64,000 nucleotides of DNA from Paludibacteraceae bacterium (GTDB taxonomy: Bacteria; Bacteroidota; Bacteroidia; Bacteroidales; Paludibacteraceae), in assembly GCA_017394705.1 (NCBI GenBank), contig JAFPXH010000006.1, positions 1-64,000 of the forward strand, given 5' to 3'. Position 1 is the stretch's first letter. Each line of letters starts with the position of its first letter. This document shows, piece by piece, positions 9,942 to 31,142 of the stretch. Below the pieces are notes generated by a model. That model did not search any database. It had not been told where the DNA came from and saw only the letters and a list, made by a program, of their open reading frames with translations. The position numbers were made by a program, and so were the translations under genes.

Positions 9942-10001
9942 ATTTTTACACATTTATCGCGAATATCTGCACGCGCGCGTGTAAAAATATGCGTACCTTT
10001 G
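9942..10001 (+). promoter_or_regulatory. Promoter with inverted repeats upstream of the IgGFc-domain gene
   Basis: The -7 element TACCTTTG is at 9994-10001; the -33 element is weak. Just upstream, ATTTTTACAC (9942-9951) and GTGTAAAAAT (9979-9988) form a 10-bp inverted repeat, and CACGCGCGCGTG (9970-9981) is a perfect 12-bp palindrome. The first could terminate the endonuclease transcript or act as an operator. Confidence 0.6.
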
Positions 10002-10042
10002 CGCCGTATTTGGTTTTACGCATATTTAACACATCAAATCAT

Positions 10043-12733
10043 ATGAAAAAACAATTACTTTTAGGAATGGTGCTGGCTGCGATGAGCTTGCTGCCGAGCA
10101 CTCTGTTTGCGCAATCCACACAAGGTACCGACTTTTGGGTAACATTTATGCGTGGCGACAGAGGAAAATCCGGAACAGACAACGGCTATGACAAATTGTT
10201 ATTAAAATTCTCTGCGCAAGAAGCCACAACCGTGTACATTAAAAATGAGTACACAGAGTATGAAGACTCGGTAAAATTGGGGGATAATGACATTCAAGAG
10301 TTATTGCTCAATAACTATGCGTCCTCTTGTTACGTAACTGACGATGATGAAGAAACTCCTTCAAATCATGCAATACACGTTACATCAGATAAACCCATTT
10401 CGCTCATCGCTGCTAACTATAAAAACAAATCTTTCGATGTGGCAGCTATTCTGCCAACCAAGGCATTATTGAGCGAATATCGCATCCAATGCTATTCTCC
10501 TTCCGCTCACAAGGAGGACGCCGGACATTTCCCTCATGGTTCACATTTTGCAATCGTAGCCGCAGAAGATAATGTGGTAGTTGATATCACTCCGACTGCG
10601 CGTACTCACGGAAAGGGCAGAGCTATCGGTGAAACATTTGCGACTGATACACTCCAAAAAGGACAAGTGTATTACGTATGGAGTGGTCCAAATGAAGGAC
10701 CCGAATACGACTTTACAGGAACAGTTATTAAGGCTCGTGGGAATAAGAAAATTGCGGTATTTAATGGTAACTCACACACTAATATCCCTATACGTATAAA
10801 AGATCGTGATCATATTTATTCACAGGCCATGCCTGTTAACTATTGGGGAAAACGATTTGCTATCACGTCTTCCTTAACCACGATTGACAACCAAAAAGAG
10901 AAAACATCCAGCGACTATAAAAAGTTGAATGGTTATTATGAACGCATTGACAAAATTCGCGTACAGGCTTTAGTGGATAGTACTGTAGTTTGGATTGATG
11001 GGCAAATAGCTGATACTATTGCTTTTAACGATCCCAATTCTCTGGATCATCAACATCATTTCTTCGAGTTTGATTTTGGGAAACAGGAAACAGGAAAAAC
11101 AGCTGGATACAATGGAGATGGACATGATTTCTATGACGGAGTGAGTCACTATATCGAAACTTCATGTCCTTCGGCCGTGCATCTCTTTTTGACAAGTAAC
11201 CAATATGATCATAATAAGACATATAAGGAAGATGGAGTTGAGTACAAATATTGCAACGGTGATCCGTCAGAGATTTGGGTGAACCCGATTGAGCAAAAGA
11301 TTAAGACACTTACTTTTGGTACATTTGAAACTCAGCAAGTAACAGACCACTTCCTTAACATTGTAACCACCAAAGATAATGTGGCATCGGTTCGCTTAGA
11401 TGGAAATGATATTTCAGGACAATTCCAAGACTTGCTGGGCAATTCGGAATATATGTTTACACGTGTTACAGGTCTGGAAAACGGCACACATACCCTCTCC
11501 TCTGACTCTGGTTTCATTGCACATGTGTATGGTTTTGGTCAACGCGAGAGTTACGGGTATCCGGCTGGTGGTGAAACGAAAGACTTAACGGCTTTCATTA
11601 CCATCAACGGGAAAGTGTATAGAGCGGATGGAGACAATAAAATCTGCGGTGATGACAAAGTGACGTTCGGTTGCGAGCTGAACTACGAATACGATAGTAT
11701 CTACTGGTACTTCGGAGACGGCAAGGACAGTCTCATGGTTGAGGAAGCCGACTCCGTAGAGCATTTCTATGACCAAGCATCGGTTTACAACGCGTATGTG
11801 CTCATCTACCGTCATATGGGAGAAGACGACGGATGTATCAATTTCTCCAATACGGATAGTATTGCTTTCAAAGTAAATATCGGTAACTACCAGATTAATA
11901 TCAAGGACATTGAACTGCCGTATTGCAGCAAAGAGGGCGATGAGGTGGATATGACTATTATTCTGGAAAATCCGGCAGAGGTTGAATTGAGCGGCGACAG
12001 CGTAACGCTGCAGTTCAATGCCGATGCGATTGCAGCGGGCTTCAAAGAAGACCAGATACGTACACAAGGCGACACCGCGCTGATTGTTAAAGTGCCAAGC
12101 GGAGCCAAGAACAGAACGGAATACGGACTCCATATGCATATCGGTTCCGAGTGCCCGAACAGCGTCTTTGATAAAGATTTGAACTTCACGTTGACCTTCG
12201 ATATTCCTGTCCTTGAGCAACGTTACAATAATGTGCTGGGCGTGCGCCAGGATTCCTTCCCAACACAGGATTTGAGTGATTTCGTGTGGATTCATGATGG
12301 CGACACTCTGTATGATCAGCGGACATCGGTACTCTATTTGGATGAGACAAATCCGGAGAACAAGGGTGAGTACTACGTTTGCTTCACTATCAAAGAGCAA
12401 GGGCAACCGGATTCACGTTATTGCACGTGTCCTATTGCCTTTAAGACGGATGGTGCAAAGCACTCATTTGACACAGCTGATCCTAAGATTACAGCCGTTT
12501 ACGAAGTGAGCGGTGACAAAGTATTTGTGAATGCACAGTTTGACGAAGAGAATAAAGATATCGAGTGCTACGCACAATGGTACGATGTGAGCGGACGTGC
12601 TTTGGAGGGCGGACGATTCGATTTGCCTAACGGAGGACGCACGATTGAAGCACCGCGACGCAACGGACTCTATCTATTGCGTGTCGTCACTGGAAAAGCT
12701 GCACGTAGTTTCAAATTCATCATTAACCATTAA
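10043..12733 (+). CDS. IgGFc-binding-domain surface protein with PKD domain and T9SS C-terminal domain
   Basis: 896-residue secreted protein. Signal peptide (MKKQLLLGMVLAAMSLLPSTLFA), then an N-terminal region starting QGTDFWVTFMRG that fits the IgGFc-binding N-terminal family (about 28-500). A PKD-like domain follows with IYWYFGDGKDS (about 545-610), then Ig-like strands. It ends in a classical type A T9SS domain: WYDVSGRALEGG, NGLYLLRVVTG, SFKFIINH. It is therefore probably exported by T9SS and surface-attached. ATG at 10043 begins the signal peptide. A paralogue lies at 15125, with an OmpA-family gene between them. The IgGFc name reflects similarity to a human mucus protein domain; ligand unknown. 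Confidence 0.85.
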   Translation: MKKQLLLGMVLAAMSLLPSTLFAQSTQGTDFWVTFMRGDRGKSGTDNGYDKLLLKFSAQEATTVYIKNEYTEYEDSVKLGDNDIQELLLNNYASSCYVTDDDEETPSNHAIHVTSDKPISLIAANYKNKSFDVAAILPTKALLSEYRIQCYSPSAHKEDAGHFPHGSHFAIVAAEDNVVVDITPTARTHGKGRAIGETFATDTLQKGQVYYVWSGPNEGPEYDFTGTVIKARGNKKIAVFNGNSHTNIPIRIKDRDHIYSQAMPVNYWGKRFAITSSLTTIDNQKEKTSSDYKKLNGYYERIDKIRVQALVDSTVVWIDGQIADTIAFNDPNSLDHQHHFFEFDFGKQETGKTAGYNGDGHDFYDGVSHYIETSCPSAVHLFLTSNQYDHNKTYKEDGVEYKYCNGDPSEIWVNPIEQKIKTLTFGTFETQQVTDHFLNIVTTKDNVASVRLDGNDISGQFQDLLGNSEYMFTRVTGLENGTHTLSSDSGFIAHVYGFGQRESYGYPAGGETKDLTAFITINGKVYRADGDNKICGDDKVTFGCELNYEYDSIYWYFGDGKDSLMVEEADSVEHFYDQASVYNAYVLIYRHMGEDDGCINFSNTDSIAFKVNIGNYQINIKDIELPYCSKEGDEVDMTIILENPAEVELSGDSVTLQFNADAIAAGFKEDQIRTQGDTALIVKVPSGAKNRTEYGLHMHIGSECPNSVFDKDLNFTLTFDIPVLEQRYNNVLGVRQDSFPTQDLSDFVWIHDGDTLYDQRTSVLYLDETNPENKGEYYVCFTIKEQGQPDSRYCTCPIAFKTDGAKHSFDTADPKITAVYEVSGDKVFVNAQFDEENKDIECYAQWYDVSGRALEGGRFDLPNGGRTIEAPRRNGLYLLRVVTGKAARSFKFIINH

Positions 12734-12753: not shown

Positions 12754-14997
12754 ATGACAAACATACTTCGTAACATACTGATTGTAAGTGTTATCCTGAG
12801 TTTGACCAGCGTTCCGGTTATCGTTTCCGCTATGCCGGAACCTGTTCCTGCCACGCAGACTGACAGACAAAAAGCAGCGGCTCAACGCCAGAAAGAGGCA
12901 GAGAAGCGCAAGAAAGAGCAAGAGAAAGCCAAAGCGGCTCGTGAGAAACAGAAAGCAGCTGACGCCAAGAAACGCGAGGCTGAGAAGAAAAAAGCCATAG
13001 CTGCCAAAGCGGCTGCAGACAAACGAGCAGCTGCCGCTAAAGCCGCTGAGGAAAAGAAAGCCGAACAGGCAAAAGCTAATGCCAAGGCACAGGTTCAACG
13101 CGACAAAGAGGCTGCAGAACGCGCGAAAGCGGCTGCTCAACGCGAAGAAGCAAGAGCTAAGAAAGAAGCAGAAACAAAGGCTAAAGAGGAAAAAGCCATC
13201 CGCGATTATGAGAAATATCAGGAAAGTCTCGCTAACCCGAAAACCGAAGTAATCTCTTATTTCAACCTCGGTTTGCGTTTGGGCTATGCCGCCATGATGG
13301 ATAAAATCCAGCCCATGCAGGATGGTTCGTTGTGGGGAGCCGGTACGCTCAACCAGAGCAATGCATATCAGCAACTGAAAGGTGGCCCTGGTGTAGGGTT
13401 GGATCTGACCTATAATCTCGAGTATGGTCATTTCCTCTTTGAGACAGGCTTGGACTTCCGTTTCCTGAACTCGACATCCGCCTATGGTTTTACTGCAACC
13501 CGTCAAGACGCCACATACGGAGCGGAGTACCGCTACCTATTTGACAACCTGCGTGAGACACGAAACATGTTAGAAATCGGGCTTCCGCTTATGTTCGGTG
13601 CCCAGTTCAGTAGATATTATTTCCTGCTCGGTGCAAAAATTCATTATGGGCTTCCTATGGGCTATAGCCAGAAAGGTCAATACGATATCACGGTTAACGA
13701 CCCTGTTTTCACGGAGCCTTATGGTATGGGTATTCATGATTTGAACGGTCGTACCAACTCTGCAATCAAGTTCGCGCAACCTGACGTCAGCGTAGCTGCT
13801 GAGGTGGGTCTGGACTTGGACGAGTGGCTGCAAAAACAGCCGAGTGACAGCAAAGAGGCAAAGAAAAAACGTCAAGCCGTCAAGCCCGGTCAACGCCAGC
13901 CGTTCGGGCAGGAGCATATCCATTATCGCGTGGCGCTGTTCGCAGAATACGGTGTGCTCAATACCAATGCAACGCCAGCTGCGCTGCCTGTAGAATTTGC
14001 AGCAGATGCTGTTCCCGTACAGAGCACCAATACAATGCTCGCTATGAACGGCGATACAAAGCTGAACAACCTCTTTGTGGGTGCTAAATTCACCGTGCAG
14101 TTTGAGGTGCCGGGTAAGAAAGCACGTCCTGTTCCACCGCCTTCATCCTACGCAATATACAGCGTCGTGAACGCGGAAACACAAGAGCCGCTGAAGGTTG
14201 CTTTTGTTGAGACGCGCGGCACAGAGAGCGGCAAGATTGCTATGCGTGAGAAACAAATCGGTCCGAAGGGCTTCAAACAGAAACACGCCGTCGGTTCATT
14301 CACCGCAGAAGCTAAAGCAGACGGATTCTACCCGGCTACGCAGGTGTTTGAGATTGAAAAAGTGGGTAGTACCAATTATGTTACTATTGCCCTCAAGCCT
14401 TGTCCTGTTCTGCGCGTACGTGTATATAATAAGGAAACAGGACTCGCCGTTCCTGCTACGGTACAGATTCTTCGCAGCGATAAAGAGGAACCGGCTTATA
14501 ATTTGGCTACAGACACCACCACAGGAACGGTGCGCCAGATGTTAGAGCAAGGTCCGAAATACCGCCTGCATATAGCGCAGTTAGGTTACGACACACTGGA
14601 TATGGACATCGCTTCTATCGGCGACTCCATGAACGTAGCCCTCTCGCCAATTAAGAAAGGTGAAGTGTTTGTAGTCAAGAACCTTTTCTTCGCTACCAAC
14701 AAGACACGTATCCTCTCGCGTTCGGAAGAGGCACTCAATGACCTCTATATGTATCTGGCACGCAACCCGAAGATCCGCGTGAAGATTGTCGGCCACACCG
14801 ATAGCGTCGGTAAAGACGAGGCGAACCAGAAATTGTCTGATGGACGTGCTAATGCCGTTATGCAAGATCTTATCGAACGCGGTATAGCGCCGGAGCGTCT
14901 GCAAGCAGAAGGACGTGGTGAAACCCAACCGGTGGATACCAACGATACCGAAGAAGGTCGTCAGAATAATAGACGTGTAGAAATCGAGATACTTTAG
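12754..14997 (+). CDS. OmpA-family outer-membrane protein with Ala/Lys-rich coiled coil
   Basis: 747-residue envelope protein. Signal peptide (about 1-26), then a long Ala/Lys/Glu coiled coil (about 35-160, TolA-like in composition), an outer-membrane barrel-like region (about 165-455), a carboxypeptidase-regulatory-like domain (about 465-550) and a C-terminal OmpA peptidoglycan-binding domain (about 635-747). The last has GHTDSVGKDEANQKLSDGRA and NNRRVEIEIL. A strong AGGAGG precedes the ATG, unusual in this lineage. It sits between two paralogous IgGFc-domain genes (20 nt after the first), so it could anchor or help display them. That role is inference. Confidence 0.85.
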   Translation: MTNILRNILIVSVILSLTSVPVIVSAMPEPVPATQTDRQKAAAQRQKEAEKRKKEQEKAKAAREKQKAADAKKREAEKKKAIAAKAAADKRAAAAKAAEEKKAEQAKANAKAQVQRDKEAAERAKAAAQREEARAKKEAETKAKEEKAIRDYEKYQESLANPKTEVISYFNLGLRLGYAAMMDKIQPMQDGSLWGAGTLNQSNAYQQLKGGPGVGLDLTYNLEYGHFLFETGLDFRFLNSTSAYGFTATRQDATYGAEYRYLFDNLRETRNMLEIGLPLMFGAQFSRYYFLLGAKIHYGLPMGYSQKGQYDITVNDPVFTEPYGMGIHDLNGRTNSAIKFAQPDVSVAAEVGLDLDEWLQKQPSDSKEAKKKRQAVKPGQRQPFGQEHIHYRVALFAEYGVLNTNATPAALPVEFAADAVPVQSTNTMLAMNGDTKLNNLFVGAKFTVQFEVPGKKARPVPPPSSYAIYSVVNAETQEPLKVAFVETRGTESGKIAMREKQIGPKGFKQKHAVGSFTAEAKADGFYPATQVFEIEKVGSTNYVTIALKPCPVLRVRVYNKETGLAVPATVQILRSDKEEPAYNLATDTTTGTVRQMLEQGPKYRLHIAQLGYDTLDMDIASIGDSMNVALSPIKKGEVFVVKNLFFATNKTRILSRSEEALNDLYMYLARNPKIRVKIVGHTDSVGKDEANQKLSDGRANAVMQDLIERGIAPERLQAEGRGETQPVDTNDTEEGRQNNRRVEIEIL

Positions 14998-15124
14998 TAT
15001 TGAGAACCGCTTTAAAGCAGATTGAGATTATATAGGACGAAATACAACATTTCAATAGGACCATCACGGGACCATGTCCCGAGGAAGTTCCAATATAGAA
15101 CATTTGACAAATAACACAATCTAT

Positions 15125-17890
15125 ATGAAAAAGTATTTTAAATTAGTATTGCTTGTAGCGTTCCTTATCGGAGGAAATGTACATTCTTGGGCGCAAGCTC
15201 CTTCTACAGAAGGTCAGGACTTCTGGGTAACGTTCTTACGTGCGAGTGAGAACGACGGAGGTCCGGATACACTTAAACTGACCATCTCGGCGAAAGAGGC
15301 TTGTACTATAACGATTCAGCAACCCGGTGTGGCAAGAGACATTACGTTTAACGTGGGAGACAATAGTAGTACCGAAATCAGTACGAACGGAGGTCCTGGT
15401 AACCAAAAAATACAAGAGGCTAAGTGCTATAGTATGAACAACGAGACTGTTACACAAACAGCCCTTCATGTGACAGCCACCAAAGACATCTCGCTTTTCG
15501 CCGGTAACTTCCGAGAGATGTCTTTCGATGCAGCAAATATTCTTCCTACATCAGCACTATTGGATGATTACTTGATTCAAACATACCCACCATCTGACCA
15601 CGAGAACAAGCCGCAAGGTAGCCACTTTGCTATTGTCGCTGTAGAAGACAATACCGTTGTTGATTATACACTGACAGCGGCTACCAATGGAGGAAAAATC
15701 GGAAGGCAGACAACCCCTACGCTTAAAAAAGGAGACGTGTGGTACGTTTGGACAGGTAACACGGCAGGAAACGAAGCAGACTTGAGTGGCACCACCGTTA
15801 CAGCCCGTGATAAAAAGAAAATTGCGGTCTTCCAAGGTTGCCCGCATACCAACATCCCGAATAAAGTGCGTGACCGTGACCATATTTATTCGCAAGCCAT
15901 GCCTATTGCGTATTGGGGAACGGAGTTCGGTATCACTGCTTCACGCAAGCATCGTCGTGACATCGTAGCCGTTATGGCTATCAATGATGGTACGCAAGTA
16001 TATATCAATAGCGAGGATGGCGAACCTCAGCTGGTGCATACCTTTGATTTCAATGTGGACAAGAAACACTATTGGACGTTTGAAATAGGAGAAAGTTTGG
16101 CCTATTGTGCAGATAAAGACCAGATGAAGACATTAGATCCTCCCTTGGTAGCAGATTCATCTTGTTTCCTAACGACGTCGTGCCCCGCCGGAGTGCACCT
16201 ATTTATGGTATCTAACCGCTATGACAATGTGACGGAAACTGTTGAGGATGACTCGCTGGTCAGCGACCCTGCGATGCTATGGATTAGTCCTATTGAACAA
16301 GTAATCAAGGAGATTAACTTTGCTACTTATCATACAGAATATATTCATAAAGGCAAACCTGCCGGTACAAAATTCCATTTTATGAATATCCTTACCACAA
16401 CTGAAAATGTTAAAACGATGACGTGGAACGGGACGAATATCAAGCAATATTTTTCCCCACTAAGAGGAAATGAAGATTATTCATTTGCACGCATACAGAT
16501 TCCGAGAGGCAACCATAATTTGAAAGGCAAGACAGGATTCCTTGCTCATGTGTATGGTTATGGTTGGAAAGAGTCGTACGCTTATTCTTGTGGTTCTTCT
16601 ACGGTGCAACGCAGTATTGCCTTTAATGACGAGCCCTTGGATATTGATAGCGTCACCAATACGCATTTCTGTTTGGGCGACACCATTAACATGAAACTCA
16701 ATATCGGTAATAACAATTACGAAAGTGTGCTTTGGGACTTCGGTGATGGTATCACCTACTCGTCCCGTCCGGGTGCATCCAACAATGAGAAGAAAACTGC
16801 CCAACACGCGTACAGTACACCCGGATGGTATGACCTGTTGGTGACAGCCAAATATGTCAATGCTTGTACCGGCAAGGAGTACACAGAAAATTTGGGGCTC
16901 TCCTTCTGCGTTGTTCGCGCCGATACCGTTTGGCATGTCAAAGATACTTGTGTTTCTGAGGACTATCAAGGCGATGCCAAAACCCTTATGGACACCGTGG
17001 ACTATGATTGCGACTCTGTGGTCGTAACGCAGAATTTTGTCCATCGTGTAATACCTAACCGCTTTGATGCAACGGCATTCAATGACACAACCATCAATGG
17101 TGTTTACTACGATGAGACACCGGCAGAGCCGATTACGTGGACGATTGAGAAAGGCAACTACAATGGTCGCTGCGACTCTATCTTTGTTTGCAACCTGACC
17201 ATCAAGAAATGTCTCAATTTGGAGATTAGTAACGATTCAGCGGCGCAGTTCGCTTGCTATGGAGACACATATGACCTACCCTTCTCAATGCATAAGGATG
17301 GCGATTATGGAGCAGTGTACTTCGCATTAGAAGGCAAACGGGCGGAGGTCCTGAGTCCGGATGCCATCAAGGTATTAGAGACAGTGGACGGACGGAATAT
17401 TGGTATTATCACCTTGCCGATAGAAAGCCTGCAACCGGGTAGATATAAAGCTACCGTTGAGGTAGAAGATAATAACTGCGGAGGTAAAGCCGTTTCTCCG
17501 GTTCTCGACATCGCGGTACGCTATCCGGATAATGTATTCAACTTCAAGTTCAACAACGTACTGGCTGTTTACAAAACCAACCATGGTGGTAATGAAGGTT
17601 GGGAGTTCAGAGAGTACCAATGGTATCTCAATGGTGAAAAGATTGAAAACGCCATAGAGTCCGTCTATCATACCGAAGAAATCTTCAAGCCGGGCGATGT
17701 ATATTTTGTAGAGTTGACCGACGCAAAGGGTATGAAGCTCCGTTCTTGCGAATTCACAGTGCCGGAAGATATTGATCACTACGAGCAGGAGGAAAGTGAA
17801 CCCGCAGCTGTCAAAACCTTCGTCAACCGTCGTCTGTATATCCAGAAGGGCAACGTGCTCTATGATATGTACGGACAAAGAGTAAAGTAA
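15125..17890 (+). CDS. IgGFc-binding-domain surface protein, paralogue
   Basis: 921-residue secreted paralogue of the protein at 10043. Signal peptide MKKYFKLVLLVAFLIGGNVHSWA, then EGQDFWVTFLRASEND and matching blocks such as RDRDHIYSQAMPIAYWG, which is nearly the same in both. A PKD-like WDFGDGITYS region (about 540-590) and further Ig-like strands follow. Instead of the full T9SS type A domain it ends with the short tail NRRLYIQKGNVLYDMYGQRVK. ATG at 15125 starts the signal peptide. The preceding 127-nt spacer has a small GGGAC-CAT-GTCCC hairpin. Divergence of the sorting ends suggests different export or anchoring. Confidence 0.83.
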   Translation: MKKYFKLVLLVAFLIGGNVHSWAQAPSTEGQDFWVTFLRASENDGGPDTLKLTISAKEACTITIQQPGVARDITFNVGDNSSTEISTNGGPGNQKIQEAKCYSMNNETVTQTALHVTATKDISLFAGNFREMSFDAANILPTSALLDDYLIQTYPPSDHENKPQGSHFAIVAVEDNTVVDYTLTAATNGGKIGRQTTPTLKKGDVWYVWTGNTAGNEADLSGTTVTARDKKKIAVFQGCPHTNIPNKVRDRDHIYSQAMPIAYWGTEFGITASRKHRRDIVAVMAINDGTQVYINSEDGEPQLVHTFDFNVDKKHYWTFEIGESLAYCADKDQMKTLDPPLVADSSCFLTTSCPAGVHLFMVSNRYDNVTETVEDDSLVSDPAMLWISPIEQVIKEINFATYHTEYIHKGKPAGTKFHFMNILTTTENVKTMTWNGTNIKQYFSPLRGNEDYSFARIQIPRGNHNLKGKTGFLAHVYGYGWKESYAYSCGSSTVQRSIAFNDEPLDIDSVTNTHFCLGDTINMKLNIGNNNYESVLWDFGDGITYSSRPGASNNEKKTAQHAYSTPGWYDLLVTAKYVNACTGKEYTENLGLSFCVVRADTVWHVKDTCVSEDYQGDAKTLMDTVDYDCDSVVVTQNFVHRVIPNRFDATAFNDTTINGVYYDETPAEPITWTIEKGNYNGRCDSIFVCNLTIKKCLNLEISNDSAAQFACYGDTYDLPFSMHKDGDYGAVYFALEGKRAEVLSPDAIKVLETVDGRNIGIITLPIESLQPGRYKATVEVEDNNCGGKAVSPVLDIAVRYPDNVFNFKFNNVLAVYKTNHGGNEGWEFREYQWYLNGEKIENAIESVYHTEEIFKPGDVYFVELTDAKGMKLRSCEFTVPEDIDHYEQEESEPAAVKTFVNRRLYIQKGNVLYDMYGQRVK

Positions 17891-18742: not shown

Positions 18743-18774
18743 CAAAAGTACTGCTTTTTTTTGACATGTGCAAA
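18743..18774 (-). promoter_or_regulatory. Promoter of tRNA-Val
   Basis: Minus-strand TTTG (18774-18771), 20 nt, TACTTTTG (18750-18743). Confidence 0.75.
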
Positions 18775-18864: not shown

Positions 18865-18895
18865 TTGCACATATCAGAAAAAAGTTGTAATTTTG
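18865..18895 (+). promoter_or_regulatory. Promoter of the Macro-TIR-TPR operon
   Basis: TTGCACAT at 18865, then TAATTTTG at 18888-18895, 20 nt after the TTG core. The start codon follows at 18922. Confidence 0.72.
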
Positions 18896-18921: not shown

Positions 18922-19833
18922 ATGACCTATTTCGGCAGTCATAAATATGTTGCGCAGCACTGGAAAAAATTAGCGCGCTGGAGTGCAAAGAGTTTTATTT
19001 CCTGGAGTTTGATGCTCTTCACTATTAATGGTTCATTTATTGCTTTTCTTCCTCCTGAAGACTCTGCGAGGTTGAAATCACATATCCATTATTTATGGTT
19101 TCATCCCTGGCTGTTAGTATTGCTTATCCTGCTGATAGCGTGTTTGGCGGTATTGTATAACTGGCCCTTGACACGCGCGGAGTATAAGGATAAGAATACA
19201 GATATCCGCGTGATTATAGAGTGCTGCGACATCCTGGCCCAGCACGGGCTGAAAGTAATTCATGTAGTGGATACGTTTGATGCCGAATTAGGAAGAATCA
19301 TCACCCCTCGTTCGTTACACGGTGCATTCTTGAGGATGTGCCAACAGGAGCATTTCGACGTGGATGCGGCGATAGACGGAGCATTAGAGGGAGTGAAGCC
19401 TGCAGCGACAATAAAATCTTTACCCGGTCGTAAGGTCCGTTATGCGTTAGGCACTTTGTGTCCGGTGAATCTTAACGAGGAGCATTTCTGCATGGCGGCT
19501 TTCACTCACCTGCAGACAAACGGTTCCATTGCCATCACCAAAGATGAGTATATCGCGTGTCTGAAGCAGTTATGGCACAATTTAGCCAATCCGCGGATAC
19601 GCGAGGAAGTAGTTAATGTAGCAGTGATGGGTAATCGTTTTGTAGATTTGCCGGCAGAGTTTTCCACGGAGCAGAAGATAGACCTGATGATACAGACTTT
19701 CTTCGCCGCCGCGCGAGAGAAAGCCTGTTGCCGCACGCTCCGTATCTGTATCCACCCGGATAACGTGACGGATATCGACTTTGGCAATTATCCGGTTATT
19801 ATCGAGCACCTGGCCAAACGTCCTATCATCTAA
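18922..19833 (+). CDS. Membrane-anchored Macro-domain protein (DUF6430/ThsA-Macro type)
   Basis: 303 residues. Two N-terminal membrane helices (about 24-43 and 62-81) precede a cytoplasmic domain (about 95-297) that follows the DUF6430/ThsA-Macro pattern: VVDTFDAE, ITPRSLHGAF, LPGRKVRYALGTL, FCMAAFTHLQTNGSIAITKDEYIACLKQLW (split here from a longer block), then AVMGNRF and TLRICIHPDNV. In type II Thoeris, a two-helix Macro effector senses a TIR-made ADP-ribose derivative. Here the phosphate loop, usually LLGSGxxR, reads VMGNRFVD (about 235-242), so ligand binding may be altered or lost. It is 10 nt upstream of a TIR gene, fitting a Thoeris-like pair. Defence function is not established. Confidence 0.78.
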   Translation: MTYFGSHKYVAQHWKKLARWSAKSFISWSLMLFTINGSFIAFLPPEDSARLKSHIHYLWFHPWLLVLLILLIACLAVLYNWPLTRAEYKDKNTDIRVIIECCDILAQHGLKVIHVVDTFDAELGRIITPRSLHGAFLRMCQQEHFDVDAAIDGALEGVKPAATIKSLPGRKVRYALGTLCPVNLNEEHFCMAAFTHLQTNGSIAITKDEYIACLKQLWHNLANPRIREEVVNVAVMGNRFVDLPAEFSTEQKIDLMIQTFFAAAREKACCRTLRICIHPDNVTDIDFGNYPVIIEHLAKRPII

Positions 19834-19843
19834 TCCCATAGGC

Positions 19844-20989
19844 ATGCAGAAAGAGTACAAATATTTTGCGTTTATCAGTTTCCAGAGCGGCGATGCCCGT
19901 GAGGCCGTTCGTTTGCAGCATGCGATAGAGCGTTATCGGTTGCCGGCGGTGTTATGCAAGCAGGACAAGTCGCTTCCGCGGCGCATCAAGCCTCTGTATT
20001 GCTACCTGAATGATATCCATGCCGGGGAAGAGTTGATGCAGGAACTGAAGAGCCGCATGGAGCAATCACGCTATCTGATAGTTGTCTGTTCGCCCCGCGC
20101 AGCACAGTCCACTTATATTAATAGCGGCATTGATTATTTTGTCTCTTTGGGGCATCGGGACAGTATCATTCCAATTATTATTGACGGCGTACCTTATAGC
20201 GGTGATACTCACACAGAGTGTTTTCCGGAGGCCTTGAGACGTCATTTTCCGCGACACGCGGATCCGTTACAGGACCGCTCTATCTTAGGCGTCAACACCC
20301 ATGAGGCGGGTATCCGTTCACGTCGCAAGGCCTACGACCGCGCGATGTTGATGGTGGTAGCCCGCATGCTGCAGTTAGACTTCGACGGACTGCTGTTACG
20401 CGAGAAACAACGTCGTCGCAAACGTGCAGTACTCTGGTCGCTGTTGGCGCTGGTAGTCTCCGCTGCACTGAGTCTCACTTGGCATTTTGCGCAGACAGTG
20501 GATGTCGGTATCCGTGTAGAGGAAGGGAGTGCTGTAAATAATATGTTGCCGCCTTGCAAACAGATAGCTATACAGTTGCAGTTGGATAACGAGATAAAGA
20601 GTGATACGTTAGCAGAGGTCGGGCAGACGTTGCTCTTCCGCAATATTCCGCCACAGTTTATCGGGAAAGACGTGCAAATATGTCTCCGTGCTGCAGGCTT
20701 TAAGCCTTGCGATACGACGGTAGTGTTAGAGCGGCAAATGACGCTGCCTCTCTACCGCGATGAAGATTTATACGGTAATGTTCACTTCCGTCTGGTAGGT
20801 ATTGCTCACCCTGAGCGACAGAAATTGTCTATCGGCGGACACGAAACGACACCGGACAGCGAAGGACTTATTAACTTGCATATTCCCGTCGAAAACCAGC
20901 AGACAGTTTATGCCGTAACGGTCAATGGGATAACGGATTCGATTTATATGCCCTGCGGCGAAGATGATATCATTGTAGTAGCGCCATGA
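19844..20989 (+). CDS. Membrane-anchored TIR-domain protein lacking the catalytic glutamate
   Basis: 381 residues. An N-terminal TIR domain (about 5-115) starts KYFAFISFQSGDARE and continues with CYLNDIHAGEELMQELKSRM and YLIVVCSPRAA. In this bacterial TIR group the next segment normally reads S-x-W-V-N-x-E, where Glu is the NAD-cleaving residue. Here it is STYINSG (89-95), so Trp is Tyr and Glu is Gly95. The conserved ECFPEALRRHF and ILGVN blocks follow. A membrane helix (about 195-214) leads to a beta-rich extracytoplasmic half (215-381). ATG at 19844 fits the TIR start. It overlaps the next gene by ATGA. Likely a pseudoenzyme or altered-activity signalling protein. Confidence 0.88.
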   Translation: MQKEYKYFAFISFQSGDAREAVRLQHAIERYRLPAVLCKQDKSLPRRIKPLYCYLNDIHAGEELMQELKSRMEQSRYLIVVCSPRAAQSTYINSGIDYFVSLGHRDSIIPIIIDGVPYSGDTHTECFPEALRRHFPRHADPLQDRSILGVNTHEAGIRSRRKAYDRAMLMVVARMLQLDFDGLLLREKQRRRKRAVLWSLLALVVSAALSLTWHFAQTVDVGIRVEEGSAVNNMLPPCKQIAIQLQLDNEIKSDTLAEVGQTLLFRNIPPQFIGKDVQICLRAAGFKPCDTTVVLERQMTLPLYRDEDLYGNVHFRLVGIAHPERQKLSIGGHETTPDSEGLINLHIPVENQQTVYAVTVNGITDSIYMPCGEDDIIVVAP

Positions 20990-22545
20990 AAAGAATAATA
21001 CTATGGATCATATGCGCGTTATGCGCGTGGGACGCGAGCGCAGTGATGCAAGAAGGTAACGTTCGCAGCCTCGCCCGCAAAGGACGTCCGGGGACGCCTA
21101 TCGAAGGCGCCATCGTTCGTGTACGGGGCTCGCATAATGCCGTGCAGAGCCGTCCGAACGGTGATTTCTCGTTATTGCTGCAAAACCTGCAGAACGGCGA
21201 CCCGTATACCATCGCGAGTATTACCAAGAGCGGCTACGAGCCCGCCGAGCAAGGCTTGATAGGCAAACGTATCCCTTGCTCCGAGAGTGTGCCATTAGAG
21301 ATTATACTGGCCAACACCGGAGAGTTACAGGCCGAGAAAGAAGCCATCGCCGCCAAGGCGCGGGAGAACGTAGAGATATACTATCAGACGCGTCTGGCGG
21401 CTCTGGAAAAACAGTTGGCAGCCAAGCAGATGACAGAGCAGGAGTATAGTCGTCGCTTGGAAGAGTTGGAAGGCCAGTACGAACGCTTTGAGCCGTTGTT
21501 ACAGACAATGTCTGACCGGTTCGCACGCACGGACTACGGTCGGTTGGATTCTCTGACCGCGCTTATACAAGAGTCTATTGAAAACGGTAATCCCGAGGAG
21601 GCGGAGCGGTTAGTGCGGGAAAAAGGCGATTTGGAGCAACGGGAGAATGCCATCCGCGCGCAGGAAGAGCAGATCTCCCGGGCACAGCAAACGCTGGACG
21701 AGTCGCAGGCACAATTAGACCAGCAACGGGCGCTTACTACACAGCAGAAACGGGAATTGGGGGATGATTACTATCGCATGTATAGTGCTTTTCTCTCCCG
21801 TTTCCAGAATGATAGCGCCGCTACGTACATTCTCCGCCGCGCGGCATTGGACACTACCGATGTGGACTATCAATTACAAGCAGGACAGTTCGTTAAGGAG
21901 ATCATGGCAGACTATCCTCAGGCACAGCGTTTCTTTGAACGTGCATACCGGATATGCGAAACACAATATGGCGAAATGAGCGGACAGATGGCCACCACGT
22001 GCCATGAGTTAGGTTCGGTCCATAAGGCGCAAGGTGATTTGGACGGTGCGGCACTTTGGTACGAGCGCGCGTTGCGGATTAAAGAGAAAGTGCGGGGGAA
22101 AGATGCACCTGCGGTGGCTGAGACGCTGAATAATATCGGCGAACTATACCGTGCGAAGAAAGACCTCAAGCAAGCCATGAACTGCCATAAGCGGGCATTG
22201 AAGATCCGTGAGAAAGCGTTTGATGCCAAGCATCTGGCGGTGGCCGAGAGTAAAAATAATATTGCTGGAGTGCTGTACCAGCAGGGACAAATCGCGAAGG
22301 CCGAGAAACTGTTCCGTGAGGTAAGGGAAGTGTATGCCCAAAATCCAAAGACTCCACCGATGCAGGTTGCGGGCAATTATAACAACTTGGGCGCCATCTC
22401 TTATCAGTACGGCCGATATGCGGAGGCAGCGGACTATTTCCGCATGGCGTTAGAGATATATACCAAGGTTCTGGGCGAAGCCCATCCGCGCACACGCGCC
22501 ACAGTCAATAATATGCAAATCTGCCAACAGAAAACAGACAAATAA
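20986..22545 (+). CDS. Secreted TPR protein with carboxypeptidase-regulatory-like domain
   Basis: 519 residues. Signal peptide (about 1-19), a carboxypeptidase-regulatory/Ig-like domain (about 25-105, TPIEGAIVRVRG..NGDFSLLLQNL), a long glutamine-rich coiled coil (about 110-260), and at least four TPR units (about 310-515) such as ATCHELGSVHKAQGDLDGAA and ETLNNIGELYRAKKDLKQAM. It probably faces the periplasm, the same side as the C-terminal half of the TIR protein. Its start overlaps the TIR stop (ATGA), so expression is coupled. TPRs bind protein partners; a sensor or scaffold for the TIR-Macro pair is a reasonable but untested guess. Confidence 0.85.
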   Translation: MKRIILWIICALCAWDASAVMQEGNVRSLARKGRPGTPIEGAIVRVRGSHNAVQSRPNGDFSLLLQNLQNGDPYTIASITKSGYEPAEQGLIGKRIPCSESVPLEIILANTGELQAEKEAIAAKARENVEIYYQTRLAALEKQLAAKQMTEQEYSRRLEELEGQYERFEPLLQTMSDRFARTDYGRLDSLTALIQESIENGNPEEAERLVREKGDLEQRENAIRAQEEQISRAQQTLDESQAQLDQQRALTTQQKRELGDDYYRMYSAFLSRFQNDSAATYILRRAALDTTDVDYQLQAGQFVKEIMADYPQAQRFFERAYRICETQYGEMSGQMATTCHELGSVHKAQGDLDGAALWYERALRIKEKVRGKDAPAVAETLNNIGELYRAKKDLKQAMNCHKRALKIREKAFDAKHLAVAESKNNIAGVLYQQGQIAKAEKLFREVREVYAQNPKTPPMQVAGNYNNLGAISYQYGRYAEAADYFRMALEIYTKVLGEAHPRTRATVNNMQICQQKTDK

Positions 22546-22553
22546 CAGTAATT

Positions 22554-24026
22554 ATGAAAAAGATATATGTAATATTGGCAACATTATTGCTTGCCCCATC
22601 TACTTTTGCTTACGATTTCACAGCATTGGATATAAATGGAAACACTATTTATTACAACAAATTAGGAGGTGATAGTGTGGAAGTTACTAACAATGGTAGC
22701 CAAAATACCTATTCGGGAAACATTGTAGTGCCGAATAACGTCAAAAACAACGAATTAATCTATCGGGTAACTACCATCGGTGCCAGTGCTTTCCAAGCGT
22801 GTACACTTTCTTCTTTGTCGCTGCCAATAGGTATTCAAGAGATTAAAAGTAATGCCTTTAATACCGCGAAATTAAACACGGATTTATTATACCTTCCAAA
22901 TCTTAAAAAAATAGGCAGTAGCGCATTTAGTATATGCTGGAATCTACGAAAATTGCAGATGCCCAAACTTCAGCAAATAATTGGTGGAGGAACGATGTTT
23001 CGGGATTGTTATGAATTGGAAGAAATAGTATTTCCAGATGAATTGAAAAAATCCGATCAATTATCAATGCATTTTTTTGACAGCGATGTAAAGTTAAAAG
23101 GGATAAAACTTCCATCTAATCTAAAAACAATTCCAATAAGTTGTTTTAGTGCATGTTGGAGTTTGAAATACGTTATTTTGCCTGACAGCACAGAAAGTAT
23201 TGGCGAAAATGCTTTCCTTGGATGTATATGGTTAAAGTCCATCACCATTCCTGCGAATGTCAAGACAATTGGAGATACATTTATCTGCGGTAAAGCATGG
23301 ACTTATTGGGGAGGAGCTCCTTATGACGACACACGTTTCACTGGAGGAAAAGTAGATGGTTTATTACCTAATGATGCAAATAATAATCAGTTGAATAGCA
23401 TTTATTTTGAAGGCTTAACCCCTCCGCAAGTAACCACTAAGACTTTTGCAAATATTACCAAAGACAAAGTCACTTGTTATGTACCGGAAGAGGCTTTAAC
23501 CACTTACAAAGCAGATAGTTTATACGTAAAGGCCTTTGCTGCCATTAAAGGCTACCACCTTGGAGATTCCAAGGTCGAGAATATCACATCTTATACTGCT
23601 CAAATCAAATGGTTACCGGATAGTGCAGTAACGCAATATACAATAGACCTTTATATTTCCGGAACAAAAATTGCACAATATATCGTGGATGGCGAGGGCA
23701 ACCTACAATCCTCGCAACGCTATGCACCTTCAGTTAATCGCCACAAAAATGATACTACAGTCAACACTACGGATTATTTTGTCATTACACTTGATGGTTT
23801 GAACGCCAGCACGACATATTCATATACCATATCCGGTATCAATGCTGCCAGACAACACATCTACCACGAAGAAGGAGTTTTCGAAACAAAAGAATCCAGT
23901 GAAGGTTTGTTTGATATCATAGCACCCGAGCCAAACAAGGCGCGGAAAGTGCTTATTGACGGACAGATATATATTCTGCGATATAATAAAATATACACTT
24001 TACACGGGAAAGAAATTACGAATTGA
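22554..24026 (+). CDS. BspA-like leucine-rich repeat surface protein
   Basis: 490 residues. Signal peptide MKKIYVILATLLLAPSTFA; BspA-type LRR_5 repeats (about 75-330) with pattern IG.SAF..C..L..L.LP; a fibronectin-like domain (about 340-450); and the short C-terminal tail RKVLIDGQIYILRYNKIYTL ending GKEITN. It is probably secreted and surface-exposed. The gene starts 8 nt after the TPR gene, so it may share the upstream transcript. The next gene is a shuffled paralogue with the same C-terminal half, suggesting tandem duplication. Confidence 0.85.
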   Translation: MKKIYVILATLLLAPSTFAYDFTALDINGNTIYYNKLGGDSVEVTNNGSQNTYSGNIVVPNNVKNNELIYRVTTIGASAFQACTLSSLSLPIGIQEIKSNAFNTAKLNTDLLYLPNLKKIGSSAFSICWNLRKLQMPKLQQIIGGGTMFRDCYELEEIVFPDELKKSDQLSMHFFDSDVKLKGIKLPSNLKTIPISCFSACWSLKYVILPDSTESIGENAFLGCIWLKSITIPANVKTIGDTFICGKAWTYWGGAPYDDTRFTGGKVDGLLPNDANNNQLNSIYFEGLTPPQVTTKTFANITKDKVTCYVPEEALTTYKADSLYVKAFAAIKGYHLGDSKVENITSYTAQIKWLPDSAVTQYTIDLYISGTKIAQYIVDGEGNLQSSQRYAPSVNRHKNDTTVNTTDYFVITLDGLNASTTYSYTISGINAARQHIYHEEGVFETKESSEGLFDIIAPEPNKARKVLIDGQIYILRYNKIYTLHGKEITN

Positions 24027-24030
24027 CAAT

Positions 24031-25665
24031 ATGAAAAAAATCTATTCTCTTACACTATTGTTGATGGCAGTTATGTACTCTTCTGCAGAGGAGTATCATG
24101 GATACTGCGGTGCCGATAACGAGGGGACTAATCTGGAATGGTTCTTAAACACTGCCGATAGTTCATTGATTATTTCCGGATCCGGACAGATGGAAAATTA
24201 TGACAATGCTTCCAATGTGCCATGGTATGCATACCGCGCAGAAATTAAAACCGTTAACATTGCCGATGGTGTGACATCAATCGGAGACAATGTCTTTGAT
24301 ACATATCCCAACATTACGACTGCCACCATAGCAAACAGTGTCTTATCCATTGGTGCATACGCATTTACTTCTTGCCCAAAACTGTCAATCGTTACTTTGC
24401 CTGAAAATCTCATCACTATTCACCAATGTGCTTTTAATAGTTGTACCGCATTGCAGACTCCCACGCTACCAGAGACTCTCACAACCATCGGTGGTCAAGT
24501 TTTTTATCAATGTCATCAATTCTCATCCATTGAGATTCCTCGTAACGTTTCATCAATCGGAGAGCAAGCCTTTTCCAATTGTTCCCAACTCACAGCCATC
24601 CATGTTGCAGAACAAAATACTGCCTATGTGGATATAGACGGTGTACTCTATACCAAAGACACCTCTACCCTTGTAGTATGTCCTGCCGGAATTCCTCTAA
24701 TGAATTATGAAATCCCAACAGAAGTAGCCGCCATAGCAAGCGGTGCATTCTATGGCTGTAAACAATTCACAAGCATTAGTATTCCTCACACTGTCACTTC
24801 CATCGGCAGTGATGCCTTTCATTATTGTCAGCAATTAGTTTCCATTACTTTCCCTGATAATTTGACCACCATATGGCCCAACACCTGTAGTAACTGTACA
24901 AATCTAAAAAGTGTCCATCTTCCGACCAATGCCACTTCCATTAAGGATGCGGCTTTTAATGTCTGCAGCAGTTTGACAGAAATTCATATTCCCGAGAAGG
25001 TGACTTCGTTAGGATGGTTTTCTTTTGGCAACTGTCCGGATCTTGACACTGTGTACTGCGATGCACCTACACCACCAACCCTTGATGTTCAGGCTTTTGA
25101 AGGAATTTCCGAGCAAGCGGTTCTTGTCGTGCGATTTGCGTGTCTGGCATCATATCAAGCAGATGAGACATTTACAAATTCTTTTGCAGAAATAACCAGT
25201 TATTCTATTCCTTCAGAAATTTCAGCCGCAACAGCGTCTATCAAATGGTTGCCGGATACAGCGGCGGCAGAGTACATTATCAGTGTTTATACTGCGGATA
25301 CGCTGTATCAGCAATATCAAGTAGATTCAACAGGAGATGTTGTCACACAATTAAAATTGCCGGCATTGCGACCGATGCCGCAGAAGAAAGACACAACTAT
25401 TAGCAGTACCGACTATTTCGTTATCACACTTGGCGGATTGACAGCCTCCACGTTGTACACCTACACCATCGAAGGCAAGAATCGCATGAACGAACTTGTC
25501 TATTTAGAGCAAGGCTCTTTCCAGACGAAGGATATTGGAGAGGGAGTGTCGGATGCCACGGCAGAAGAGCCTCGGCGGGCACGGAAGACGGTCCGCAACG
25601 GGCAACTGCTCATTCTGAGAGAGGAAAAGACATATACCGTCCAGGGACAGGAAGTAAAATACTAA
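24031..25665 (+). CDS. BspA-like leucine-rich repeat surface protein, paralogue
   Basis: 544 residues. Signal peptide MKKIYSLTLLLMAVMYSSA; an N-terminal WYAY-containing beta segment; about ten LRR_5 repeats (about 75-400), for example SIGAYAFTSCPKLSIVTLPE; the same fibronectin-like domain as the previous gene (IKWLPDTAAAEYIISVY); and the tail RKTVRNGQLLILREEKTYTV ending GQEVKY. ATG at 24031 begins the signal, 4 nt after the previous stop. Such proteins often bind host or bacterial surfaces in oral and gut Bacteroidales. Ligand unknown. Confidence 0.85.
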   Translation: MKKIYSLTLLLMAVMYSSAEEYHGYCGADNEGTNLEWFLNTADSSLIISGSGQMENYDNASNVPWYAYRAEIKTVNIADGVTSIGDNVFDTYPNITTATIANSVLSIGAYAFTSCPKLSIVTLPENLITIHQCAFNSCTALQTPTLPETLTTIGGQVFYQCHQFSSIEIPRNVSSIGEQAFSNCSQLTAIHVAEQNTAYVDIDGVLYTKDTSTLVVCPAGIPLMNYEIPTEVAAIASGAFYGCKQFTSISIPHTVTSIGSDAFHYCQQLVSITFPDNLTTIWPNTCSNCTNLKSVHLPTNATSIKDAAFNVCSSLTEIHIPEKVTSLGWFSFGNCPDLDTVYCDAPTPPTLDVQAFEGISEQAVLVVRFACLASYQADETFTNSFAEITSYSIPSEISAATASIKWLPDTAAAEYIISVYTADTLYQQYQVDSTGDVVTQLKLPALRPMPQKKDTTISSTDYFVITLGGLTASTLYTYTIEGKNRMNELVYLEQGSFQTKDIGEGVSDATAEEPRRARKTVRNGQLLILREEKTYTVQGQEVKY

Positions 25666-31111: not shown

Positions 31112-31142
31112 TTGCATATGTCAAAAAAAAGCAGTAATTTTG
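31112..31142 (+). promoter_or_regulatory. Promoter of ysxC
   Basis: TTGCATAT at 31112, 20 nt from the TTG core to TAATTTTG at 31135-31142. Confidence 0.75.

What the first reader, a model, noticed from the sequence alone, without database searches (positions are those of the whole stretch)
18922..22545. Thoeris-like Macro-TIR pair coupled to a secreted TPR protein
A two-helix membrane Macro-domain protein (DUF6430/ThsA-Macro pattern) is followed by a TIR protein, matching the gene content of type II Thoeris, where a TIR enzyme makes an ADP-ribose-based signal sensed by a Macro effector. Here the TIR protein is itself membrane-anchored with an extracytoplasmic half, and it overlaps (ATGA) a gene for a secreted CarboxypepD-like/coiled-coil/TPR protein. 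That would link an envelope-facing sensor to a cytoplasmic TIR-Macro module, an arrangement I do not know as a described system.
Basis: partly seen in the sequence, partly recalled or inferred. Interest (0 to 1): 0.85.

Follow-up and report, generated by a model that had tools for sequence, protein, structure and literature searches.

The report
Membrane TIR–Macro operon, catalytic residue lost
In a gut-type Bacteroidales bacterium, a gene pair that resembles a known anti-virus alarm system (Thoeris) has lost the residue its TIR enzyme should need, has a changed signal-binding pocket in its partner, and sits in an operon with secreted sensor-like proteins, so it may relay a signal from the cell surface by protein contact, somewhat as animal Toll receptors do.

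Summary
18922-19833 is a two-helix ThsA_Macro protein (PF20016, E 3e-34), 19844-20989 a TIR protein with one membrane helix and an extracytoplasmic half, 20986-22545 a secreted coiled-coil/TPR protein. (1) A secreted BspA-type LRR gene belongs to the cluster in 14 of 18 assessable loci. (2) The catalytic Glu of the TIR is Gly in all 22 Macro-coupled TIRs found (21 complete, 1 partial), but Glu in 19 of 19 relatives without a Macro. (3) The pyrophosphate loop of the Macro domain, with Gly in 15 of 16 comparison ThsA, has R, K or S there in 22 of 22. The changed TIR is under strong purifying selection. Sister membrane TIRs that keep the Glu lie near RyR or RCK genes in 5 of 12 loci by Pfam. So this looks like a branch of a wider envelope TIR-TPR(-LRR) module that took a ThsA-Macro while both active sites were re-tooled. 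An enzymatic TIR-to-Macro signal is doubtful. I favour a non-catalytic TIR relaying an envelope cue to the Macro protein by contact. Gene content is Thoeris-like, but a defining feature is not met. No function is shown.

The parts
18865..18895 (+). Bacteroidota-type promoter TTG-N20-TANNTTTG in front of the operon
   Evidence: 16 matches in window, 0.8 expected; this one 26 bp before the Macro ATG
18922..19833 (+). TM-Macro protein (ThsA_Macro family), 303 aa, two N-terminal membrane helices, Macro domain predicted cytoplasmic
19633..19644 (+). re-tooled pyrophosphate loop N238-R239-F240-V241
   Evidence: codons checked: 0 of 22 keep the glycine, 15 of 16 comparison ThsA do
19844..20989 (+). 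membrane TIR protein, 381 aa: TIR (about 4-177), helix 195-213, beta-rich half after the helix (216-381, extracytoplasmic by the positive-inside rule)
20126..20128 (+). codon GGC of Gly95 at the place of the catalytic Glu (INSGIDYF against WVxxEI)
   Evidence: Gly in 21 of 21 complete Macro-coupled TIRs (and partial L057), Glu in 19 of 19 others
20986..22545 (+). secreted coiled-coil/TPR protein, 519 aa, overlaps the TIR gene by ATGA
22554..24026 (+). secreted BspA-type LRR plus fn3 protein with a C-terminal sorting-like tail, 8 bp after the TPR gene
   Evidence: LRR_5 2.4e-34; LRR_5 in 14 of 14 such genes tested in the clade
24031..25665 (+). second LRR_5 gene, same strand, 4 bp further on (possible accessory; conservation not tested)
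   Evidence: LRR_5 5.5e-61; start codon chosen by eye

Best explanation
An envelope-spanning, Thoeris-derived sensor-effector operon in which the TIR no longer works as an NADase. Secreted LRR and TPR proteins detect or present a cue at the cell envelope and engage the extracytoplasmic half of the membrane TIR protein. Its cytoplasmic TIR domain, lacking the catalytic Glu, acts as an assembly platform (as the non-enzymatic TIRs of Toll-like receptors and MyD88 do; recalled) and clusters or switches the neighbouring two-helix TM-Macro protein by direct contact; clustering of its membrane helices damages the inner membrane or arrests growth, probably as abortive defence. Shown: anatomy, conserved gene order, Glu to Gly, altered Macro loop, purifying selection. 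Inferred: direct contact, what is sensed, membrane damage, defence.
For: Gly at the catalytic site in 22 of 22 Macro-coupled TIRs, Glu in 19 of 19 relatives without Macro; Macro-coupled TIRs are one clade, 100/100 support, with the catalytic columns left out of the tree. The TIR domain is nevertheless the best conserved part (mean pairwise identity 0.75 against 0.45 for the extracytoplasmic part; dN/dS 0.04-0.08 in three pairs), so it is functional. The Macro partner changed too: loop G to R/K/S and S to N in 22 of 22; position 116 is V in 22 of 22 and N in 16 of 16 comparison ThsA. Macro and TIR distances correlate, Spearman 0.81 over 21 loci. 5 of 6 near-complete Macro-coupled genomes hold no other PF13676 TIR that could make the signal in trans. 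TPR in 18 of 20, LRR in 14 of 18 assessable loci. A two-helix ThsA with nucleotide-induced Macro oligomers is described in PMC11204291 (abstract and sections read).
Against: No interaction, phage or toxicity data. A lost Glu does not prove lost catalysis; Glu63 is invariant in the 21 complete TIRs and by inference lies near the active-site loop, though L036-L038, which keep the catalytic Glu, also have it. The Macro keeps adenine-site residues (D103, H278 in 22 of 22), so it may still bind an adenine ligand. TPR and LRR are missing in L058 and L059, so the Macro-TIR core can do without them. In the wider TPR family 11 of 18 fetched regions have no TIR of this kind, so the TPR is not tied to TIR everywhere. 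No recognised defence island was seen around the loci, judged by eye from ORF lists.
Confidence: 0.42

Rival explanations
1. Ordinary type II Thoeris chemistry with a shifted active site: the TIR still makes an adenine dinucleotide, using another acidic residue (for example Glu63), and the re-tooled Macro reads a correspondingly changed signal.
For: Gene content of type II Thoeris; Macro keeps D103 and H278 in 22 of 22; R/K in the loop could still hold a phosphate (inference); Macro and TIR changed together.
Against: Gly in place of the Glu that 19 of 19 relatives keep, in 22 of 22; Glu63 is not new to this branch; loss of the loop glycine.
Confidence: 0.2
2. Pseudoenzyme plus re-tooled sensor: the TIR only holds or guards the Macro, which senses a different adenine metabolite (NAD+ itself, or an ADPR product made by phage or host).
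For: Adenine-site residues kept, pyrophosphate loop changed; many clade-specific Macro residues lie at 224-290.
Against: Does not by itself explain the extracytoplasmic TIR half and the secreted partners.
Confidence: 0.18
3. Not a defence system: a surface-physiology or envelope-stress signalling module (LRR and TPR surface proteins, membrane TIR-Macro relay).
For: LRR with sorting-like tail and TPR as conserved partners; no defence-island context noticed; catalytic site lost.
Against: Patchy presence (P0001 matches 9 of 200 family genomes; 7 of the 9 are this pair, the window's own included), differing flanking genes in most loci (L047/L048 and L049/L055 share some), ThsA homology.
Confidence: 0.2

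Closest known systems
Type II Thoeris (TM-Macro ThsA + TIR ThsB; PMC11204291)
   Different: TIR has Gly for the catalytic Glu, is membrane-anchored with an extracytoplasmic half; Macro loop glycine is R/K/S; secreted TPR and LRR partners
Membrane TIR-TPR modules of Bacteroidales with the catalytic Glu (seen here: L036-L040, L096, L099-L101, L107, L108, L113)
   Same: Same TIR architecture (one helix, a domain after it) and same TPR family (33, 33 and 60% identity for L037, L038, L040); LRR gene in L037, L040, L108
   Different: Catalytic Glu kept in 12 of 12; no Macro; RyR genes by Pfam in L039, L040, L100, L101 and an RCK gene in L037, further similar genes in L036 and L108 only by my own profiles. 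The listings showed no description of such a module
Toll-like receptors / MyD88 (recalled)
   Same: Extracellular LRR, membrane helix, cytoplasmic TIR without the catalytic Glu, signalling by assembly (recalled)
   Different: Here LRR and TIR are separate chains, homology of the LRR parts is not implied, the presumed effector is a Macro protein

Membership tests
Type II Thoeris | ThsA with two membrane helices and a ThsA-type Macro domain | tested here: met
Type II Thoeris | TIR protein encoded next to it | tested here: met
   22 of 22 loci (window +), 2.25 kb away in L060
Type II Thoeris | TIR active site with catalytic Glu | tested here: not met
   Gly in 22 of 22
Type II Thoeris | Macro ADPR pocket, glycine of the pyrophosphate loop | tested here: not met
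   kept in 0 of 22; 15 of 16 comparison ThsA keep it
Type II Thoeris | signal nucleotide made on phage infection and bound by ThsA; phage protection | not testable with these tools
   needs biochemistry and phage challenge
Bacteroidales membrane TIR-TPR module (group defined here) | TIR with one helix and a domain beyond it, plus secreted TPR of the same family | tested here: met
Bacteroidales membrane TIR-TPR module (group defined here) | RyR or RCK-type partner gene (not universal: 5 of 12 by Pfam, 7 of 12 with my own profiles) | tested here: not met
   0 of 22 Macro-coupled loci by my own profiles; several of these loci are short, 3.2-7.4 kb
Toll-like receptor | LRR and TIR on one chain across a membrane | tested here: not met
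   LRR is a separate gene

The most novel reading that the evidence does not exclude
A split, Toll-receptor-like immune relay in bacteria: secreted LRR and TPR proteins, a membrane TIR that has given up NAD+ chemistry for assembly, and a TM-Macro effector that has given up reading an ADPR signal and answers to the TIR by contact; a route from enzymatic to scaffolding TIR reached independently of animals.
Probability: 0.3. Interest if true: 0.92.

Novelty: new variant of a known kind. Interest (0 to 1): 0.72.

Why it matters
Bacterial TIR proteins in defence are generally described as NAD+ enzymes, animal Toll and MyD88 TIRs as scaffolds (recalled, and abstracts listed). A conserved bacterial TIR clade that lost the catalytic residue where it took on a new partner gives a natural case for how a signalling enzyme becomes a scaffold, and links a Thoeris-type pair to envelope sensing. 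The sister modules, with a catalytic-type TIR near RyR-domain proteins that keep the four ligand residues reported for a phage RyR enzyme that cleaves ADPR-based signals, suggest a further, untested class of NAD-signal systems with RyR effectors.

Tried and rejected
Considered: catalytic Glu hidden by misalignment. Rejected: WVxxEI and YINSGI align without a gap among relatives, and the only solved TIR found by profile (3jrn, E 0.002) aligns its SSWCLDE to the same column. Considered: sequencing error. Rejected: Gly in 22 loci from separate genomes. Considered: degenerate gene. Rejected: dN/dS 0.04-0.08 for the TIR domain in three pairs (several comparisons with the window had saturated dS and gave no ratio). 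Considered: signal made in trans by another TIR; 1 of 6 near-complete genomes (G158) has one by PF13676; PF08937 found only the pair's own TIR in 7 of 7 genomes; other TIR profiles not tried. Viral contigs searched for the TIR: 3 pattern matches, no relative. DUF4062-type proteins guessed by eye beside TPRs in L109, L111, L112: no Pfam DUF4062 match at E 0.01, so not claimed. The sorting-tail regex was written after seeing such tails and missed the window's own LRR gene; it marks 12 of 201 ORFs in L045-L065 and 10 of the 14 LRR genes tested, so it is weak support. The half of the TIR protein beyond the helix was not folded or searched alone. A sigma-70 and terminator scan was no better than chance. 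The His-ADPR paper and a 2015 survey of nucleotide-centred conflict systems (both recalled) are not held.

Limits of counts: L045-L065 come from a scan keyed to EQKIDLM and [VI]NVAVMGN, so Macro proteins of this clade with another loop would be missed; this biases the Macro-loop count, not the Gly count. L096, L099-L101, L107, L108 and L113 were found through the TPR, so TPR presence is by construction in 7 of the 12 Glu-type membrane loci; of the five found through the TIR, four have a TPR (L036 has none). For the TPR survey I fetched 18 regions from 12 of the 14 non-own genomes with hits; 7 of 18 hold such a TIR, 11 do not. My RyR and channel profiles were built partly from L036, L037, L039 and L040 themselves, so their hits there are circular; the Pfam count is the firmer one: RyR in L039, L040, L100, L101 and RCK in L037, nothing by Pfam in L036 and L108. 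The 16 comparison ThsA were picked by profile similarity, without checking each for a ThsB neighbour.
Full report
What is there. The Macro to TIR gap is 10 bp, TIR and TPR overlap by ATGA, and a fourth gene, a BspA-type LRR plus fn3 protein, starts 8 bp after the TPR gene; a second LRR_5 gene follows. A promoter of the Bacteroidota type lies at 18865-18895; such sites number 16 in the window against 0.8 expected, and the next one on the + strand with this exact spacing is at 31112, so one transcript is plausible. A sigma-70 scan was no better than chance.

Where else. In 200 family genomes P0001 matches 9, the window's own included; 7 are this pair and 2 (G118, G139) are small type II Thoeris-like clusters with a ThsB_TIR gene, a Macro gene and a further TIR-like gene. 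A scan of 84,980 species genomes gave 21 loci, all titled as uncultured Bacteroidales or Paludibacteraceae, several from ruminant guts. A TIR of the same kind follows in 21 of 21 (after 2.25 kb in L060). The TPR follows in 17 of 21, or 18 of 20 when the window is added and two contig ends are removed; L058 and L059 lack it, L049 and L055 carry a divergent one (27-28% identity). The LRR gene of the cluster has LRR_5 in 14 of 14 tested (L064 just below the curated cut-off; in L052 it lies between TIR and TPR), that is in 14 of 18 assessable loci; by the ORF lists, not by Pfam, L049, L055, L058 and L059 lack it, and four contigs end too soon. LRR_5 stretches number 21 to 67 per genome in seven genomes, several per gene, so chance adjacency should be rare; the loci are related, so this is not a formal test.

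The wider module. Membrane TIRs that keep the Glu also travel with the secreted TPR family: 4 of the 5 found by a TIR search (L036-L040) and, by construction, 7 found by a TPR search. Against a fixed bond, 11 of the 18 regions fetched through the TPR hold no such TIR. Near 5 of the 12 Glu-type loci lies a RyR gene (L039, L040, L100, L101) or RCK gene (L037) by Pfam; L036 and L108 add similar genes only by my own, partly circular profiles. Near none of 22 Macro-coupled loci did those profiles find one (some of these loci are short). Of 20 RyR-type ORFs examined, 8 carry the exact spacing H-x2-W-x21-H-x16-D, against 0 of 955 background ORFs; L041, L042 and L098 are among the 8 but not among the 12 loci, and the channel-type ORFs lack the exact spacing. 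The same four residues contact the ligand in a phage RyR protein that cleaves 2' and 3' cADPR (PMC13232231, abstract and one section read); the spacing comes from the residue numbers given there. The Glu-type modules therefore look like NAD-signal systems, and the window's branch like one that took a ThsA-Macro and dropped the chemistry. The L040 TPR is 60% identical to the window's while its TIR is 33% identical, a sign of module shuffling.

Could the signal come from elsewhere? Five of six near-complete Macro-coupled genomes have no second PF13676 TIR; the window's own genome shows one TIR by that profile but is 71% complete.

Mechanism and doubt. I favour contact signalling: envelope proteins to the extracytoplasmic half, a scaffolding TIR, a clustered TM-Macro. 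That the TIR is inactive, that TIR and Macro touch, and that the outcome is defence are inferences. Filing it as type II Thoeris fails on a tested defining feature, the catalytic Glu; it may still work in a Thoeris-like way at the effector end.

Literature. The listings showed no paper titled or summarised as describing a Macro-coupled TIR without the Glu or a TIR-TPR-LRR operon; one search returned no paper at all. Only three papers were opened (PMC11204291: outline with abstract, sections 7, 11, 12; PMC13232231: outline with abstract and section 4; PMC13174449: outline with abstract). Subscription papers are largely missing from that library.

Noticed in passing
L040 4666-5598 and 18411-18701, L041 6296-7273, L042 11400-12332: RyR-domain proteins beside sigma-factor-like genes (by eye) and Glu-type TIR genes; exact four-residue ligand motif of the phage RyR enzyme kept
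   Followed up: partly
L101 3866-6373, L100 10325-12860, L108 7767-8987: In L101 a mechanosensitive-channel protein (PF00924) and a RyR gene, in L100 a RyR gene and a large gene like the RCK proteins by my own profile, in L108 such a gene alone: possible ion-channel effectors of an ADPR signal
   Followed up: partly
L017 4866-7074 and L018 5237-7411: Three-gene type II Thoeris-like cluster in the same family: ThsB_TIR, Macro, and a further TIR-like gene whose WIYEE motif keeps Glu (by eye)
   Followed up: partly
L109 5908-7041, L111 4841-5932, L112 12805-13890: Proteins with an SSAELDxDK N-terminus and a weak CarboxypepD-like C-terminus before arrays of TPR proteins and a membrane gene; resemble TIR-like DUF4062 by eye only, no Pfam match
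   Followed up: no
L039 808-2635: Membrane TIR followed by a PrsW-family intramembrane protease gene (PF13367), with a RyR gene further on
   Followed up: no
window 9989-12733 and 15074-17890: Two IgGFc_binding/PKD surface proteins flank an OmpA-family protein (12754-14997) upstream of the operon
   Followed up: no
L012 8106-8753 and the like gene in L047, L048: A small secreted protein gene overlaps the Macro start in these loci; a PEPCK-like gene (by eye) lies nearby in L047, L048 and L063
   Followed up: no
window 18743-18773 (- strand), 18865-18895 and others: A very uniform promoter core resembling TTGCAYATRTCAAAAAAAAGCAGTACYTTTG recurs across the window (16 sites of the looser pattern)
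   Followed up: no
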